Source: an uncultured Thalassolituus sp. (GTDB lineage Bacteria > Pseudomonadota > Gammaproteobacteria > Pseudomonadales > Oceanobacteraceae). Taken from it: 35,161 bases of DNA. Shown here one piece after another: positions 602 through 35,161 of this stretch. Each line of letters opens with the position of its first letter. The stretch's first letter is position 1. Where the stretch lies: positions 1 through 35,161 of the forward strand of contig CAJXIT010000002.1 in assembly GCA_913054055.1 (NCBI GenBank), given 5' to 3'. The notes below the pieces were generated by a model that had not been told where the DNA came from, did not search any database, and was given only the letters and a program-made list of their open reading frames with translations. Both the position numbers and the translations under genes were made by a program.

Positions 602-1667
602 ATGACGAAAGCGCGTTCGCAACAAGTTTGTTTGGAAGCTACACCTTACTATCACTGCGTGTCTCGCTGTGTCCGTAAAGCCTATTTATGTGGCATTGAT
701 TTTGTAACCAAACAAAACTATGAACACCGCCGTGTTTGGCTTGAACAAGAGATTTTAAAACAAGCACAAGTGTTTTCTATTGATGTGGCGGCGTATGCGG
801 TTATGTCAAATCACTATCATGTAGTACTGCACATTAATAAAAAAACAGCTGACAGTTGGTCACTGGATGATGTGATCGAACGTTGGCATACCCTGTATAA
901 AGGCAATCCATTAAGTCAGCGCTATTTAAAAGATCCAAATTTCTCTGACGCTGAATTATTAAAACTCACAGAGTTTGTTGAGAAGTGGCGTAAACGCTTA
1001 ATGGATATTAGCTGGTTCATGCGCCGCCTAAACGAATTCATTTCTAGGCAAGCTAACTATGAAGATAATTGCACAGGCCGATTATCATCTTCGCCATCCA
1101 TGGCTACGACCCTTCGGGCAACCTAGCGGTTGTGCAAATTGATCCTTCAATTTGTGGGAGGGAAGATTTAAATCACAAGCTTTGCTAGATGAAAAGGCAT
1201 TAGCCGCTTGCTTAGCGTATGTGGATTTAAACCCAGTTCGTGCAAAAATGGCAGACACTCCTGAAGATTCAGAATACACATCTGTTAAAACCAGAGCAGA
1301 GAAAGCCAAATCAGCCCACTCCCCCAACCACCCTAATCAGCAAGAAAAATCACTCATGCCATTTATTGGTAATCCACGGCAAGATATGCCAGATGGTTTA
1401 CCCTTCAAATTAACCGATTACTTAGAATTGGTTGAGCTAACAGGCAGAGTGATTCGTGAAGATAAACGCGGCCATATTGAAAAACACCAGCCCCCTATTT
1501 TGCAAAGGCTTGACATTGAAGCGGAAAGCTGGATGAAAATGACAACCAGCTTTGAAAAAACGTTTAAAGATCTAGTTGGAAACCCTACTTTAATGGATAC
1601 CGCAATCGCTTTGCTTGATAGAAAGCGACGGCCCGGCATTCAAAACTGCAAAGCCTTACTTGGCTAA
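602..1667 (+). pseudogene. REP-associated tyrosine transposase (Y1_Tnp/RAYT family), interrupted
   Basis: ORF 602-1126 carries the HUH motif (MSNHYHVVLH). ORF 1152-1667 carries the downstream part (WEGRFKSQALLDEKALAACLAYVDLNPVRAKM). The two are in different frames, separated by an insertion at about 1082-1154. Confidence 0.85.
1082..1154. repeat. hairpin-rich insertion inside the RAYT gene (~70 nt net)
   Basis: Contains GCCAT-CC-ATGGC, CCC-TTC-GGG, CAACC-TAGC-GGTTG and the perfect CAAATTGA-TCCT-TCAATTTG; interrupts an otherwise continuous GR(x)WEGRFK reading. Confidence 0.75.
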
Positions 1668-1877: not shown

Positions 1878-1942
1878 TCCTTTGTAGTTATCCTTTGTAG
1901 TTATCCTTTGTAGTTATCCTTTGTAGTTATCCTTTGTAGTTA
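1878..1942. repeat. five perfect tandem copies of a 13-bp unit (TCCTTTGTAGTTA)
   Basis: Copies at 1878-1890, 1891-1903, 1904-1916, 1917-1929 and 1930-1942; overlaps the 3' end and stop codon of the 1914-2327 ORF. Confidence 0.95.
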
Positions 1943-2327: not shown

Positions 2328-2348
2328 CTTTACCTGCCTCCAATTAAA

Positions 2349-2370
2349 ATGCTAGGAGCCCCCCTAGCAT
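2349..2370. terminator. 8-bp perfect hairpin between toxin-like gene and candidate immunity gene
   Basis: ATGCTAGG-AGCCCC-CCTAGCAT; on the minus strand followed by TTTTAATT. Confidence 0.55.
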
Positions 2371-2377
2371 CGCCAAA

Positions 2378-5300
2378 CTATATAGTACCAGGGAACACGT
2401 TAATAATATCTCCGCGTTCATTCGTAATGATAGTTAAAATCGATGTATTGGATAAACCGGATGGTGCAGGGGTCACACCAATAATCTCTCCAACATCCAC
2501 TTGCCTAATAAATTTACTATCAACTATTTCACCATCAAATCCATACTGATTATACACTGGGGTTGAAACTACATCAGCTCGTTGTAGCAAGTCTTTAACA
2601 GATTGATTAGAAATACTAAACTTACTTTTATTATCTCCAGATGTTGCCCCATGTCCATGCTTATTCAAAGCGTAATCTAACCCTTTGAACTCACTATCAG
2701 TTGAACTAGTTGGATCCCAAGTATCTTTAGATAAATTTATTCTAGATTGAGCAGTACCTGGGTCAAAATCTGGCAATGATAATTTTTCAGGATTTACTTC
2801 AACTCCAATAGCATTAGGAGCGGAAAGAATAATATCTTTCTGCTCTGGTGAAACATTCTCCCATTCAGGGGCATTAGGGTTGCTCACCCAATCATTCAAT
2901 TCAATTTCAGGCGGTAAACTCGAAAGTGTTTGCAGCTTTGTAACCACGCCCGCTGGAACGATCAAACTCAGAACACTGGCACCGCCGATTATTGCATTTT
3001 GCTGTTGGTCATCTAACTCATTCCAGTAGCGAGTGATTGTTTCGCCACCTTCAGTTTGCATAACAACCTGTACACCCGCCGCAACCTTCTCACCAACGGC
3101 ATTTAATACACCCGCAACACGCTGTGTTTCTTCAGGAAACTCACCAGCAACCAATTCCACTGCTGCTGCTGTAGCGTCACCCATAGCTTGCGAAAGCGGA
3201 TCGTCACCGCGGCCAATTGCTTGCAGGCCTTCATACAAACTACCTTCTTGAACACTCACATAACTTGTATATGCCGCAACGGCTACGATAGATATTAAGA
3301 ATAATGCATTATTCTCTGCTGCATTCGCTCCTGTGGTCGCCGCTATATTGACATCACCGCCAAGTGTAAAGGCCGTTAACGCAGCACCTAGCTTCGCCAT
3401 ATCAACGCCACTGGCTTTAAAAACTTGGGCTTGCTCCATTACAGCAGCTTGATCTAATACCACATCATCAGCTGTTTGCTCTGCTATCCAAGTTTCTAAG
3501 TCATCCTTTAAATTTGCTTCATAAAGTTGTCCTATTGCTTCACCAACAACTGCTCCGCCCATACCAGAAACACAACCTAGTTCAGAATCTCCACCTTGCA
3601 ATTCAGTTGTCAGAGTTCCTGTTAAGCAGCCTACACCAGCATGGGCAACATACTGAATGGCGGTATCTATATTGCCATTATGCTTCGCCATACCGATTTC
3701 ATTGGCCAACTCTTCACCTAACTTACTAATCGCAGACTGAGCCATGGCTTGCACAAAACCATCACCAAAATCATCAATATCGCCACCATTAACAATTACG
3801 CTTACTGATGATTGAATAGCAGAATTAACCGTAGCTTGTACAAGCTGTTGAGTTAAACCTTGAGTTGCAGTATTTGTAACAGCACCAACCGTAGTAGAAC
3901 CTGCCTCAACCGCTGAATTGATTGCATTAGTATCCGCTTGGAAAAACGCCGTATCGGCCATGGCCGAGTTAGCACCTGAAATGGCACCCGCGGTCACCAT
4001 AGAAACCGCAAGCGATCTCATATTGTCTTTACTGGATAAAGATTTAAGCGTGCTCTCTAAACTGTTGCCGTTAGCAAGACTAATAGAGGCAGTAGTAACA
4101 ATTGATGTGAAGCCTGCCGCAGCCGCTGCTCCTAATACGGTTGTAGTACCACCAACCGCAGTGCCAATAGCACCCGCCGCTGGCCCAGCAGCAATAGCAA
4201 CTGCAATGGTTAATACAGCAATGGCTGCTGGACTAAGCGTGGTATCCGATTCATACCAAGTGTCATTAAGATTTAATACTTCAATGAATTCTGCGCTATT
4301 TTCATCGCGCAGTTGAGCCATCCAGCCAAGGCCTTCAAAGCCGTTTAATACATCAATTTGCTGTGAAACAGTAAGTTCTGGATCACCTGTATATTCAACC
4401 GTGACCCCAGTTAACGCTTCAACCGCTAAACCACCCACAATGGTATTGGGCACGCCTGTTTCTCGATTATGACCATAGCTTTTTGTTTCTATGGTAAACA
4501 TGCCTTCTTTAACACTGCTATAGCTGTAGTGATCGGTCTCTGTGGTCATTAATAAATTAACACCACCATTTGCCGCTCTGACCTGAGTACCTTCGTTACT
4601 GGTTATATCGACGGATCTTAAATTAATATCACCGTAATCCGTGCTTAACTGAATATCTTTACCCGCATCCAACAAACTACGAATCGCAACCGTTTGATAC
4701 ACAGAGGTGTCTATTTCTTTTTTACCAAATTTAGCGCTGGCTGTTTCTTGGGATTGACCAAGGGCATCAATAATGGTGATACCAAGACCCGCCAAGATTT
4801 TGATGGCACCTTCTGAGCTGACCAGTTCGGCAGCGTCTAACGTAATTGCGCCTCTGGCAATTAGTTCAATGTTGTCTTGTGCGGACAATGACGATTGTAA
4901 AAAGGTTAGATCTGAGCGATCCACAGTCCATCGGCCTTCTCGGCCAGAAAAACTAGAACTTATAGGAATAGTACCAATTAGAATGCTGCCATCGGCATTA
5001 AAAGTAATGGCACCTTCATTAGCACCTACCAAACTGCCGAGAACACTGATATCCCCACGACTTTGAAAACTAATATCGCCGTTATCAGATTCAACCGTAG
5101 TTAGTTGGCCATATGTTGTGCCTGATTTACCACTTAAATCATAGCGATGCACAATGGTGCCTAACTCTATACTTGCAGCACCAATACTAATGTCACCCTC
5201 TGCGTTTAAATGCGTCGACAATAAAGACACATCTCCACCAGCCAGAATTTGTAAATCGCCACTGGATTCAATTTGTGAGTTTGTGGCATTAAAATCACCA

Positions 5301-6007
5301 GCTAAGTTTACAAAAGAATCACGACCAAACTTGACGCTTACGTCTTCGATATTTAGCGAGCCGAAGTTTACGTCTGCACCAAATTCAGCTGTAACACCTT
5401 CTACCACTCGGCTTAAATACGTGGCTTGTTTTAAATATAAAACGGGGACAATGACTTGCTGACCATAAACGGTTCGCAACTCTGGCCAAATCATATCGGT
5501 AGTGGCGGCTTCCCTTGATTCAGTTAACACTTGACCAAACGAATACCCACCATTTTCTTGAAAGCTTTTTGCATTGTCATACAAGGCTTGAATCTGCTCG
5601 GCTTCATCTTGATATTCAAGAGTGTCTATTAACTTCCTGCCTAATAGATTGTATATCTGCCCACGAAGCATTCGAACTTGAGCAAAAGGTGAACCCGCAT
5701 ATTTATGGGGGTCGTCTGTATTTGGATGCATATACGCATAAAAATCTTCTGCCGAAGGGTATCCAGATTGGACACTCGTATCGAGTTGAGGCACAGCGAC
5801 AAACTGATATTGCTCAACTGCTGAAGAGCTGGTCAAGTCTGGCGCGTAAATCAAACTATTTTGAATTTCACTATTTGATAATGTATTGGCTACAGCAGGC
5901 GCTGTTATCGAAAACAACATAAAAAACGTTGTAACAGCAGCCGTTATTCTGTGCCAAATTCTAAACTTGGAGGTATCCATAATTATTTTATTCACTGATT
6001 TAGCCAT
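2378..6007 (-). CDS. large filamentous-hemagglutinin/DUF637-like exoprotein with putative C-terminal toxin domain (CdiA-like, without N-terminal TPS domain)
   Basis: ORF track gives 2378-6040; ATG at 6007 (MAKSVNKIIMDTSKF) lies 2 nt past the upstream stop. Extended signal-like N-terminus (..ITAAVTTFFMLFSITAPAVA), FHA-type beta repeats (GDLQILAGGDVSL, GDISIGAASIEL), DUF637-like block (YVAHAGVGCLTGTLTTELQGGDSELGCVSGMGGAVVGE), AENN motif, and a compact C-terminus ending NERGDIINVFPGTI. Confidence 0.75.
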   Translation of the reverse strand: MAKSVNKIIMDTSKFRIWHRITAAVTTFFMLFSITAPAVANTLSNSEIQNSLIYAPDLTSSSAVEQYQFVAVPQLDTSVQSGYPSAEDFYAYMHPNTDDPHKYAGSPFAQVRMLRGQIYNLLGRKLIDTLEYQDEAEQIQALYDNAKSFQENGGYSFGQVLTESREAATTDMIWPELRTVYGQQVIVPVLYLKQATYLSRVVEGVTAEFGADVNFGSLNIEDVSVKFGRDSFVNLAGDFNATNSQIESSGDLQILAGGDVSLLSTHLNAEGDISIGAASIELGTIVHRYDLSGKSGTTYGQLTTVESDNGDISFQSRGDISVLGSLVGANEGAITFNADGSILIGTIPISSSFSGREGRWTVDRSDLTFLQSSLSAQDNIELIARGAITLDAAELVSSEGAIKILAGLGITIIDALGQSQETASAKFGKKEIDTSVYQTVAIRSLLDAGKDIQLSTDYGDINLRSVDITSNEGTQVRAANGGVNLLMTTETDHYSYSSVKEGMFTIETKSYGHNRETGVPNTIVGGLAVEALTGVTVEYTGDPELTVSQQIDVLNGFEGLGWMAQLRDENSAEFIEVLNLNDTWYESDTTLSPAAIAVLTIAVAIAAGPAAGAIGTAVGGTTTVLGAAAAAGFTSIVTTASISLANGNSLESTLKSLSSKDNMRSLAVSMVTAGAISGANSAMADTAFFQADTNAINSAVEAGSTTVGAVTNTATQGLTQQLVQATVNSAIQSSVSVIVNGGDIDDFGDGFVQAMAQSAISKLGEELANEIGMAKHNGNIDTAIQYVAHAGVGCLTGTLTTELQGGDSELGCVSGMGGAVVGEAIGQLYEANLKDDLETWIAEQTADDVVLDQAAVMEQAQVFKASGVDMAKLGAALTAFTLGGDVNIAATTGANAAENNALFLISIVAVAAYTSYVSVQEGSLYEGLQAIGRGDDPLSQAMGDATAAAVELVAGEFPEETQRVAGVLNAVGEKVAAGVQVVMQTEGGETITRYWNELDDQQQNAIIGGASVLSLIVPAGVVTKLQTLSSLPPEIELNDWVSNPNAPEWENVSPEQKDIILSAPNAIGVEVNPEKLSLPDFDPGTAQSRINLSKDTWDPTSSTDSEFKGLDYALNKHGHGATSGDNKSKFSISNQSVKDLLQRADVVSTPVYNQYGFDGEIVDSKFIRQVDVGEIIGVTPAPSGLSNTSILTIITNERGDIINVFPGTI

Positions 6008-6009
6008 CC

Positions 6010-8670
6010 TTAGTTCCACCAATCCAAGTCTTCTAACCAACTATTCATTGTTGCCACCATGCGATCAAAATAAGCACCCATTTGTTCTAGGAGGCTGTAA
6101 TCGGTCTTGATTTGCTTATCAATGAATTGACAATCTCTTACAGGAATAAAAATAGTAATCCCTCCTACATCAATAGGCACCTGTAAATCCGGAGCATTCG
6201 GGTCGCAATTTTCATCACTCTTAATATATTGAATGGTCGTTAGCTTATTACTCTGTTCATCAATAGTTTTACTTTCACTGAATCCATCGTAAGAGTCCCA
6301 AGCAAAAAGGTCTTTAACAAGATCTTCAACAAACGCGTCAAAGGCTTCAATAGTTGTCATACTTACATCGACACCGTCACCTAAAACAACATTACCACTG
6401 CTGTCGTAGGAAAATTTTTGACCCGCAGCATTACCACCAATGGAAAAAAGAGAATCAAGCTCGGTAGGGTCTGATTTAGTGATTTCTAAATGGTGAGTCG
6501 GTATGTCCCTGGTCCAGCAACGATCCCAACCAAAAGAACCACAGCTGCGAGATTCATCATGATAGGTTGTGTAATAACCTTCAGCGAAGCCTCCGCCACT
6601 TTGAACACCGTAATAGTTAACCTTATTGGCTAGAAACTGTCCGTTACCACCAATTTCAAAATGAGATGCTTTGTTCGAAAATCCATGATATGCCCTTGCC
6701 GTGAAATCGCCCACTGACATGATTAATCCAGGTGGGGAGTAAGCGACTATAGAGTCTTTATACTTCAGTAACGGTGAACCATCAGGGTGATCTTCTTCAG
6801 AATACTCTTCTAGAATAGACAGTACTCGGTATCGTTCATTAATGATAATTGGGCTATCAAATTGAACCGTGTTATCAGACACAATGCCAGCAGAGGAATT
6901 TAATAAATATTTTTGTGTTTGGATCTGTATTGAGTTAGTTGCATGCATACCAACTTGGTTGACTCGGCCCTCTTGAAACTCAAAGTCATTTGGGTCTTGA
7001 GATGGGTCTATTTGCTCCCAGTATGGGTTAATATTTTCAAAGGCCGTTGCTTTTACAAATATATTATTGCCCAGTATAAGTGAGTGCATACTGCCCTCAA
7101 ATTGTTCCTCACTTAAATCAAACTGCATTCCATCTTTATAAAATGTACCAATTTTGTACCCATCCGGCATGATCAGGTCGCTACTCTTATAATCTAATAG
7201 CGTACTAACGTCACTTTCGTCGGGAACAAATGGTGTACGAGAACCATTTCTAACTAAACCATCCTCTGCCTGTAGATGAACGGTAGAAGCCTTGAACCTT
7301 CCTCCGAATTCGTTAACGAGGTTGTTTTTAGCATAACCTTCAATTTTCATAGAGGCCGCTAATCTACCTCGGTTATATACATTCTTCCCCCCCAACCCTA
7401 GGTTGTCTGACATTATCTTGATATAAGCACCAATATATAATTCATCCGTGGCAACTAAGGAGATATGAGGCGCATCTATTAAACTAAAGTCTGTAACGCT
7501 ATACGTTACCGTATGATTCACAGATCTCCAGCAACGCTTCCAGCCAAACGCACCACAACGGTAAGACGTTCTGGACTCTACCTCGTCTGTCTGAAGTGAT
7601 ATATATTTAGACGCAAAATTTAGCCCTCCAGTTGAGCGAATCAGAACAGTATTATTTGAAAATATATTAGACCCAATGGCTGTAAATTCACTTTCGTCGC
7701 TGAATATTTGTAAAGATACCCCTTCTTGGGCTATATGGTTTTTATCCACATAACTCTCTTTTTCTGCATCCCAACTCCTATAACGAATCGAGCTTAATGC
7801 ATCTGTTCTTGTATCAATTTCAGTATTGAATATTAACGGATACGATGACCAAATTTTTGCAGACACCGCATAAATATTCCCCTCTAGTGAACTCTCTCCC
7901 TGGCTTGCTGAGCTAGATAATAAATTCTGTGTATTAAAGTCCCAAACAACATCTCCCAACGCAGCGACAAAACTGGCAGAACCTATGGTCTTATCGCCAG
8001 TGCTACTCGCCTGAAACCCACCTTCAGCAAGTTCTTCAGCCGCTTGATGTGTATTAACGTCACCCGCTAAATTAAATTGATCTACGATAACTTCTACGCC
8101 CAACGCACCCTCTGCAGTTAAACCATTAACGGTTACTGTACCGCCAATCAAGGGTTTCAAGGCGCCTACATCCGCAATGGATTCATTAAGAGGTAATACA
8201 GAATGTGTGTCGGCGTTGACGCGATTAGCAACAGCCAGTGTTACGCGAAAAGCATTATTGATGACACAAGCATTACACTCTATTGACCCTGTAGCAGATG
8301 TAGATATGAACATGATATCGGCCAAAGGTCCGACAATCTCGATATCGGAAAGGGTAATACTGTCAGATTCGATGATGATAATATCAGCCGCAGGTACTTT
8401 CACATCATCAACAAATGATGATGTATTTAATATTCTTAAACGCCTATCGCCTGTGACATCAAAACTATCAAATTTATTTACCGATATACCTGCAGCATTG
8501 GCAGGCCTAATCTCTAGAAAATCATCGACCGTATTATCCGTCAGTTGGAAGAACGAAACTTCATCATCCTGACCGGAGGAAGGAACAATGCTATTGGCTA
8601 TTGTCCCTGATGAGACAAATATAAAGAACGTAATGATTACGCCCTTAATGAAAGTGATGGTATTCTGCAT
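6010..8670 (-). CDS. TPS-domain-containing exoprotein (FHA N-terminal secretion domain-like)
   Basis: 886 aa, signal peptide, and degenerate TPS-like motifs GISVNKFDSFDV and ECNACVINNAFRVTLAVANRV (compare CNGCGFINTxRVTLTTG in classical TpsA); stop is adjacent to the downstream start. Confidence 0.65.
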   Translation of the reverse strand: MQNTITFIKGVIITFFIFVSSGTIANSIVPSSGQDDEVSFFQLTDNTVDDFLEIRPANAAGISVNKFDSFDVTGDRRLRILNTSSFVDDVKVPAADIIIIESDSITLSDIEIVGPLADIMFISTSATGSIECNACVINNAFRVTLAVANRVNADTHSVLPLNESIADVGALKPLIGGTVTVNGLTAEGALGVEVIVDQFNLAGDVNTHQAAEELAEGGFQASSTGDKTIGSASFVAALGDVVWDFNTQNLLSSSASQGESSLEGNIYAVSAKIWSSYPLIFNTEIDTRTDALSSIRYRSWDAEKESYVDKNHIAQEGVSLQIFSDESEFTAIGSNIFSNNTVLIRSTGGLNFASKYISLQTDEVESRTSYRCGAFGWKRCWRSVNHTVTYSVTDFSLIDAPHISLVATDELYIGAYIKIMSDNLGLGGKNVYNRGRLAASMKIEGYAKNNLVNEFGGRFKASTVHLQAEDGLVRNGSRTPFVPDESDVSTLLDYKSSDLIMPDGYKIGTFYKDGMQFDLSEEQFEGSMHSLILGNNIFVKATAFENINPYWEQIDPSQDPNDFEFQEGRVNQVGMHATNSIQIQTQKYLLNSSAGIVSDNTVQFDSPIIINERYRVLSILEEYSEEDHPDGSPLLKYKDSIVAYSPPGLIMSVGDFTARAYHGFSNKASHFEIGGNGQFLANKVNYYGVQSGGGFAEGYYTTYHDESRSCGSFGWDRCWTRDIPTHHLEITKSDPTELDSLFSIGGNAAGQKFSYDSSGNVVLGDGVDVSMTTIEAFDAFVEDLVKDLFAWDSYDGFSESKTIDEQSNKLTTIQYIKSDENCDPNAPDLQVPIDVGGITIFIPVRDCQFIDKQIKTDYSLLEQMGAYFDRMVATMNSWLEDLDWWN

Positions 8671-33674: not shown

Positions 33675-35127
33675 TCACATTTTATTCTCTGACCAGTTCA
33701 GACGAATATCCCAAACATGTCGGTGGGCTTCTTTTAGGGGCGGAACTTCATTATCAATGCTTCTAAACACATTACTGTTGGGTTTAATAATCGCATCACG
33801 TCCATACAAAAAACTTTGTTCTTTCACTATGCTGTAATACGCTTTGTTTAAATCCAATGCTCTTTCTTTAGATGGCGTAATTAACGGGTAAATCGATTCT
33901 AAACTTGAGATTTCATTTGTTTTGATTGAACCATCTTCATTAAACCAACGATCAATCATTTCTTGGTTCTGCCTAAATTCATCACCACCATTTACTCGCT
34001 GCATGTAGGTTAGATATTCACCTACTTGCTCATCTTGATATTTTTCATTACTAGAGAGATTAGGCACATCCATAATTTTGGTTAAATCTAAGTAACCCCA
34101 TCCTTCTGCACCGGCTACTTTACGAGGAAATGAAAATGTTTGGTCAATTGTGGTTCCAATTGTTTTATGGCAACCAGCACAGAAAAACTGCTCTTCTTTT
34201 GATTGCTGCCTTAATGCCCCATGCTCATCTTCGATGAATCCCCATATCATCCAACCAAAACCATTTGCGAACCCTCTATCACCAAAATCAGATACGGCGG
34301 GCAGGTTTTCAAAATGTTTTTCCTTGGCTTCTCCGTAATAGGCTTGACGAATCCGTCCCATAGAAAAGAATGTATGCTTTTTCATATAACGTAATTCTTT
34401 CATACGCTTAGATGGCTTAACCGAACCATCTTCATTAAGCCCTACGTAACGTACACTATGTAAAAACTCCGTACCTTGCGGATACAGCATATGAGCAACA
34501 TTTACGTCTTTTGCATCACCTACATAATAATCTAAACGCCTTACAGTCTTGACTGAATGCTCAATCACTCCGTTACCATTTACATCTAAATTTAATTTCT
34601 TTTCGTTAATTTCAGGGGTTGTGGTTTCTTGCAGATCCAGCATGGCCATTTCAACTAAAGCTAGATTCACGTAATAAGTATCTAAACTAGTTTCACCTTT
34701 TTCTTGATAAAATGCATTTGGCAAACGAATCATTACATCATCTGTTGAGCCATTGGTGGGCCAGAATGTACTTGGCATGGGTTTATAGTTAAATGCTACC
34801 CACATGCTGCCATCTAATGCTAAGCCCTTTTCATCAAACGCAGCAGCACCGTCTGCTAAGTTTTTAATTTCAGGCACAACACCAGACCATTGGTCCGATT
34901 TCATCCATTGAACAAGCGGCGAATAATTGTCTTCATCAATGTATTGCAAGATGGTGTTATCAGAAATGTCTTTTATATCTTCTGTGCGATCTATAAATAA
35001 ATTTTTCCAACTATTACTCAAACCTACATCAGAAAATTCATAACTCCCTTGTAAGCCACCGTCACCCATTTGGTTGGATCGTTTTTTATCATCATAAGAT
35101 TGATGACACACATAACAAGGGTTGTGC
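33675..35127 (-). CDS. c-type cytochrome with at least two CxxCH motifs, N-terminus truncated by contig end
   Basis: CAGCH at 34167-34181; reading frame continues upstream of the called GTG as N-P-C-Y-V-C-H, giving CYVCH at 35103-35117. Confidence 0.8.
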
Positions 35128-35161
35128 AGATCGGAAGAGCGTCGTGTAGGGAAAGAGTGTA
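35128..35161. other. Illumina TruSeq adapter sequence (contamination/read-through)
   Basis: AGATCGGAAGAGCGTCGTGTAGGGAAAGAGTGTA is the exact reverse complement of the 3' part of the TruSeq universal adapter. Confidence 0.98.

What the first reader, a model, noticed from the sequence alone, without database searches (positions are those of the whole stretch)
2378..2720. Candidate polymorphic toxin domain at the C-terminus of the FHA-like protein
Seen: after an AENN motif and linker, the last ~110 residues read LDYALNKHGHGATSGDNKSKFSISNQSVKDLLQRADVV...RQVDVGEIIGVTP...TSILTIITNERGDIINVFPGTI. The compact KHG..(R)xVDxGxxIG..T.ILTIIT..GdIiNvFPG layout resembles BECR-fold (barnase/EndoU/colicin E5-D/RelE) RNase toxins. 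Family assignment is inference; His in KHGHG would be a candidate catalytic residue.
Basis: partly seen in the sequence, partly recalled or inferred. Interest (0 to 1): 0.7.

Follow-up and report, generated by a model that had tools for sequence, protein, structure and literature searches.

The report
BECR-like RNase toxin tip on CdiA-like protein
The end of this large secreted protein is a real, widely shared toxin module that bacteria attach to many different delivery proteins, most likely an RNA-cutting enzyme used against competing bacteria; it belongs to a known kind of weapon, but to a family that has no entry in the main protein databases.

Summary
The 1220-aa ORF (window 2378-6040, minus) ends in the quoted sequence. 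The module is slightly longer than marked: it starts at P1094 (nt 2761). Homology to other proteins begins exactly there, at a PG..QSRIN motif.

More than 50 loci in Pseudomonadota, Bacillota, Bacteroidota and Myxococcota, plus a Listeria phage contig, carry this domain at the C-terminus. The carriers are unrelated: FHA/DUF637, RHS or LXG proteins. At most loci a small ORF follows at once, often with a 4-nt overlap, and these ORFs fall into at least four unrelated families. That is the hallmark of a polymorphic toxin with cognate immunity.

The His of "KH" (H1128), R1179 and T1199 are invariant; T1206 is T or S. AlphaFold gives helix plus antiparallel sheet (pLDDT 82 for the window, 93 for a relative). 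The best solved match is the BECR tRNase YxiD (probability 0.99, but E 0.03), and some members weakly match Pfam PBECR3. A metal-independent RNase of BECR type, probably hitting tRNA or rRNA, is the best reading.

No Pfam, NCBIfam or PDB sequence match exists. The motif fits "Ntox41" of a 2012 census, which could not be checked by sequence. In the window, Asn replaces the family's C-terminal Ser/Thr. The downstream 137-aa ORF is a plausible but unproven immunity gene.

The parts
2378..6040 (-). 1220-aa CdiA/FHA-like carrier protein (in-frame ATG at aa 12 begins a signal-peptide-like stretch); DUF637 at aa 639-824; ends in the toxin module
   Evidence: weak Fil_haemagg_2 match; aa ~94-600 align with internal parts of longer CdiA-like proteins
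3569..4126 (-). DUF637 (PF04830), a CdiA-type pre-toxin region
   Evidence: E 4.5e-21, 2.9e-23
3308..3319 (-). AENN motif (VENN-like), probable start of the deliverable C-terminal region
   Evidence: sequence; position; role inferred from CdiA literature
2381..2761 (-). Toxin module P1094-I1220, predicted BECR-fold RNase
   Evidence: homology boundary at aa 1094, alignment of 44, models, fold match YxiD
2735..2749 (-). QSRIN motif: Q1098, R1100, N1102 invariant in the family
2657..2659 (-). H1128, invariant His at the end of the first helix, candidate catalytic residue
   Evidence: 30 of 30 non-redundant members; helix 32-39 of the model
2504..2506 (-). R1179, invariant Arg on a strand, candidate catalytic or phosphate-binding residue
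   Evidence: 30 of 30
2444..2446 (-). T1199, invariant Thr, candidate active-site residue
   Evidence: 30 of 30
2423..2425 (-). T1206, Thr in 29 of 30 (Ser in 1)
2399..2401 (-). N1214, where 28 of 30 members have Thr or Ser (the [ST]xxP position)
   Evidence: shared with the Teredinibacter homologue L047 and seen in the fragment L009
1914..2327 (-). 137-aa ORF, TTG start with GGAGG 9 nt upstream: candidate immunity gene
   Evidence: position; marginal similarity to the L047 immunity candidate (shuffle p 0.047; hhalign P 0.18); no family match
2348..2371 (-). Short hairpin between toxin stop and downstream ORF; not scored as a terminator, not more stable than shuffles
6010..8670 (-). 886-aa secreted protein of unknown kind directly upstream (overlaps by about 30 nt); possible partner half of the carrier
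   Evidence: no family match

Best explanation
The last ~127 residues are the C-terminal toxin module of a CdiA/FHA-like polymorphic toxin. Shown here: the module is a discrete homologous family that is swapped between unrelated delivery proteins and is followed by immunity-like genes. [quoted passage not shown] The helix His H1128 would act as general acid or base, R1179 would stabilise the phosphate, and conserved Thr residues (T1199/T1206) would complete the site. The downstream 137-aa protein would protect the producer by covering the active site.
For: Same domain at the C-terminus of DUF637/FHA proteins (window, L016, L031, L051), FHA-repeat proteins (L003, L036, L042), RHS proteins (L024, L026, L027, L041, L049, L059) and an LXG protein (L012). 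52 of 53 loci have an ORF of at least 70 aa right behind it, 24 with the exact 4-nt overlap, in at least four unrelated sequence clusters. Cronobacter plasmids carry it in arrays of toxin/immunity cassettes next to VENN and other toxin genes. Confident models with His-helix plus antiparallel sheet (pLDDT 81.8 and 93.4). Best PDB match to the window model is 9v8i YxiD, probability 0.99, TM 0.45/0.54, a BECR tRNase whose conserved His residues are needed for toxicity (PMC12700104). CDI-system chains 7m5f and 6cp9 are among the top matches of the second model, though not significant. PBECR3 hits at 8e-4 and 1.3e-3 in two members shown, four in all. His in the N-terminal helix with a C-terminal-strand Ser/Thr is the published BECR configuration (PMC5512222), and His, Arg and Thr occur in the sites of CdiA-CT EC3006 and Kp342 (PMC9086364).
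Against: No fold match reached E 0.001. PBECR3 scores stay below the Pfam cut-off (19.7 of 30 bits), the window itself has no Pfam hit, and 44 members were scanned. Profile comparison with PBECR3 and Ntox50 is weak (probability 3% and 8%; single-comparison P 0.016 and 0.004). The window has Asn at the conserved C-terminal Ser/Thr and Tyr at a near-invariant His. No activity data.
Confidence: 0.8

Rival explanations
1. A polymorphic toxin with an RNase A-like fold, as in CdiA-CT of Yersinia kristensenii, rather than a BECR fold.
For: 5e3e is the second fold match of the window model (probability 0.75); its site also uses His, Arg and Thr (PMC9086364).
Against: The alignment has rmsd 9.9 and TM 0.33; a T-x-Y arrangement like T276/Y278 of that toxin is absent; PBECR3 rather than RNase A models are hit.
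Confidence: 0.07
2. A polymorphic toxin with a different target (DNA, nucleotides or protein) using a BECR-like scaffold.
For: Some RelE-fold relatives (ParE) are not RNases (PMC9086364); no activity was tested.
Against: Invariant helix His with Arg/Thr fits metal-free RNA transesterification; characterised BECR CdiA-CT proteins are all nucleases, mostly tRNases.
Confidence: 0.08
3. A degenerate toxin module: the window copy has lost catalytic power (N1214, Y1123) or immunity, in a carrier lacking a TPS domain.
For: Departures at two conserved positions; no TPS domain in either ORF and no adjacent CdiB; the genome's TpsB genes lie on other contigs; a putative split transposase and repeats abut the downstream ORF.
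Against: The ORF is intact; H1128, R1179, T1199, T1206 and the invariant glycines and prolines are kept; the same two substitutions occur in Teredinibacter (L047), so they look inherited rather than random decay.
Confidence: 0.15
4. A structural adhesin tail of an FHA protein, not a toxin.
For: The carrier is FHA-like.
Against: The same module sits on RHS and LXG proteins and as orphan cassettes, with immunity-like genes.
Confidence: 0.02

Closest known systems
Ntox41 (BECR toxin clade of Zhang et al. 2012, PMC3482391)
   Same: Listed signature [RK]H, [KR], [ST]xxP matches the family's RH/KH, invariant R and TxxP; similar carriers (T5SS, RHS, FilH, LXG) and phyla.
   Different: Window has N-x-x-P instead of [ST]xxP; sequence identity with Ntox41 could not be tested (alignment only in a supplement that was not available).
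Ntox50 / YxiD of Bacillus subtilis 6633 (PF15542, PDB 9v8i)
   Same: Best fold match; His in the first helix region, VDxGxxIG segment and final hairpin line up.
   Different: Lacks the second and third catalytic His and the HxVP motif; no Pfam match to PF15542.
PBECR3 (PF18812), phage BECR nucleases
   Same: KHG-type helix His and following strands align; four members hit the model.
   Different: All scores below the curated cut-off; typical carriers are phage polyvalent proteins.
CdiA-CT EC3006 / Kp342 tRNases
   Same: CDI delivery, BECR fold, His/Arg/Thr among the active-site residues.
   Different: No sequence similarity detected; fold match not significant.

Membership tests
Polymorphic toxin C-terminal domain | Same toxin domain on unrelated delivery proteins | tested here: met
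   FHA/DUF637, RHS and LXG carriers
Polymorphic toxin C-terminal domain | Cognate immunity gene directly downstream | tested here: inconclusive
   Family: met. Window: 137-aa ORF 50 nt downstream, only marginally similar to the L047 candidate
BECR-fold RNase | N-terminal helix with conserved His followed by a 4-5-stranded antiparallel sheet | tested here: met
   (predicted structure)
BECR-fold RNase | Ser/Thr on the C-terminal strand | tested here: inconclusive
   28 of 30 members have T/S at the last-strand position, the window has N1214; T1206 and T1199 are kept
BECR-fold RNase | Significant structural match to a solved member | tested here: inconclusive
   YxiD probability 0.99 but E 0.034
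BECR-fold RNase | RNA cleavage activity | not testable with these tools
   needs biochemistry
Ntox50 (PF15542) | Three catalytic His including the HxVP motif, and a Pfam match | tested here: not met
   only the first His has a counterpart; no Pfam hit
PBECR3 (PF18812) | Score above the curated cut-off of 30 bits | tested here: not met
   best member 19.7 bits, window none
Ntox41 | Motif [RK]H, [KR], [ST]xxP | tested here: inconclusive
   family fits; window deviates at [ST]
Ntox41 | Sequence homology to the published Ntox41 alignment | not testable with these tools
   alignment only in a supplement; no supplement look-ups available
CDI (CdiA/CdiB/CdiI) | FHA-type repeats, DUF637 and a VENN-like motif before the toxin | tested here: met
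   DUF637 E 4.5e-21, AENN at aa 908; FHA repeats weak
CDI (CdiA/CdiB/CdiI) | N-terminal TPS domain and adjacent CdiB | tested here: not met
   no TPS hit in either ORF; TPS and ShlB genes above cut-off occur only on contigs C36 and C304

The most novel reading that the evidence does not exclude
The window, the Teredinibacter homologue and a P. aeruginosa plasmid fragment form a subclade in which the C-terminal catalytic Ser/Thr has become Asn (and, in the first two, a near-invariant helix His has become Tyr). They would be paired with their own immunity families, giving an RNase with a rebuilt active site and perhaps a new RNA target.
Probability: 0.25. Interest if true: 0.5.

Novelty: new member of a known kind. 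Interest (0 to 1): 0.38.

Why it matters
It defines a coherent, cross-phylum toxin family that the searched copies of Pfam, NCBIfam and PDB do not name, with its likely catalytic residues and at least four immunity families. Many 'hypothetical protein' tails of CdiA, RHS and LXG proteins could be annotated from it. The His, Arg and Thr positions make the RNase prediction directly testable.

Tried and rejected
The window domain alone against Pfam, NCBIfam, PDB sequences, phages, viral contigs and 392 genomes of the order gave nothing useful; the L002 hit (E 0.0044) is a chance match. S100, HLA, arabinofuranosidase and nitrogenase hits were treated as chance. The viral hit L013 matched a rearranged phage-like contig and was not used. 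PADLOC: no match; PHROGs: scattered weak matches only. Homology of the 137-aa ORF with the major immunity clusters: none by BLAST. The Ntox50 query used was a consensus typed as bait from general knowledge and is not evidence. A literature search for the VQSRIN motif found nothing relevant.

Full report
What is there. The minus-strand ORF 2378-6040 encodes 1220 aa and ends exactly as quoted. It carries DUF637 (aa 639-824, E 4.5e-21) and a weak hemagglutinin-repeat match, then AENN at aa 908. A signal-peptide-like stretch follows the in-frame ATG at aa 12. Searched alone, the tail matched nothing in Pfam, NCBIfam or PDB sequences.

Relatives. tblastn with the last 100 residues found a hemagglutinin-repeat protein on two Rhizobium rhizogenes plasmids (35% identity, E 2e-5). 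That sequence led to Paraburkholderia, Cronobacter, Janthinobacterium, Pseudomonas and Phyllobacterium plasmids and a Listeria phage contig. A pattern-plus-tblastn scan of 85,462 species genomes gave 48 loci in Pseudomonadota, Bacillota, Bacteroidota and Myxococcota. The family is sparse: 2 of 399 genomes of the phylum, one of them the window's own. Within the order it occurs only in the window's own genome among 392, although two congeners and 14 other family members were searched. This fits horizontal spread.

Modularity. Nearly all tblastn matches to the tail start at or within a few residues of 1094 (PG..QSRIN), although the rest of the carriers differ. The module sits behind DUF637/FHA regions, FHA repeats, RHS repeats or an LXG domain. 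On Cronobacter plasmids it occurs in arrays of CDI cassettes. Of 53 loci, 52 have an ORF of at least 70 aa directly downstream, 24 of them starting in a 4-nt overlap with the toxin stop; the ORFs form clusters of 32, 13, 4 and 2 members plus singletons. An ORF of that length can occur by chance; the exact overlaps and the clustering are the real evidence.

Conserved residues. In 30 non-redundant members P1094, Q1098, R1100, N1102, G1120, H1128, F1141, R1179, G1188, T1199, G1210 and P1217 are invariant; T1206 is T or S. The first His of KHGHG is the invariant one; the second is not conserved. The window departs at Y1123 (H in 28 of 30) and N1214 (T or S in 28 of 30); both departures are shared with the Teredinibacter homologue L047.

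Fold. AlphaFold on 44 sequences gives pLDDT 81.8 for the window domain and 93.4 for a relative: helix ending in the invariant His, a second helix, then antiparallel strands. The window model's best PDB match is YxiD (9v8i; probability 0.99, E 0.034, TM 0.45/0.54), a BECR tRNase whose His residues are needed for toxicity (PMC12700104). The better model's top matches include CDI-system chains but are not significant. Four members hit Pfam PBECR3 below its cut-off, best 8e-4. Profile comparisons with PBECR3 and Ntox50 line up the expected segments but are weak. The BECR assignment therefore rests on several modest, agreeing lines rather than one decisive match.

Mechanism. BECR RNases typically use a helix His and a C-terminal-strand Ser/Thr without metal (PMC5512222; PMC3482391), and CdiA-CT EC3006 and Kp342 list His, Arg and Thr in their sites (PMC9086364). 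The family's H1128, R1179 and T1199/T1206 fit that plan. The same review states that characterised BECR CdiA-CT toxins are tRNases except one rRNase, so tRNA is the likeliest target here. This step is inference.

Immunity and delivery. The 137-aa ORF (1914-2327) has a TTG start with a GGAGG 9 nt upstream, 50 nt after the toxin stop. It aligns end to end with the L047 immunity candidate only marginally (shuffle p 0.047; hhalign P 0.18), so its role rests mainly on position. Its last codons run into five perfect 13-bp repeats (1878-1942), so its C-terminus may be altered. Neither the 1220-aa nor the upstream 886-aa protein has a detectable TPS domain; the genome's two TpsB/TPS pairs are on other contigs. 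How this carrier is exported is open.

Placement. It works like a CDI tRNase toxin of BECR type. It is not Ntox50 (two of three catalytic His and HxVP missing) and not PBECR3 by the curated cut-off. Its motif fits Ntox41 of the 2012 census, which appears in no other paper of the library; membership could not be tested by sequence. I file it as a new member of a known kind.

Noticed in passing
window 602-1667 (+): Two ORFs (174 and 171 aa) look like one IS200/REP-type Y1 transposase split by a frameshift or insertion near 1085-1150; the first half has a weak Y1_Tnp match (E 0.021).
   Followed up: partly
window 1878-1942 and 421-479: Five perfect tandem copies of TCCTTTGTAGTTA, and related GTGTCCTTACAGTT copies on the other side of the transposase; possibly REP-like repeats linked to it. 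The first array forms the 3' end of the candidate immunity ORF.
   Followed up: partly
window 6010-8670 (-): 886-aa secreted protein of no known family directly upstream of the toxin carrier, overlapping it by about 30 nt; with the carrier it could be a split two-gene CdiA.
   Followed up: no
window 35127-35159 (-): The reading frame at the contig end begins HSFPTRRSSDL, which I recognise from general knowledge as translated sequencing-adapter read-through, so the last bases are probably artefact.
   Followed up: no
L034:6-275 and L040:2129-2485: P. aeruginosa PA7 and Herbaspirillum loci carry a second copy of the same toxin module within a few kb, suggesting orphan toxin cassettes.
   Followed up: no
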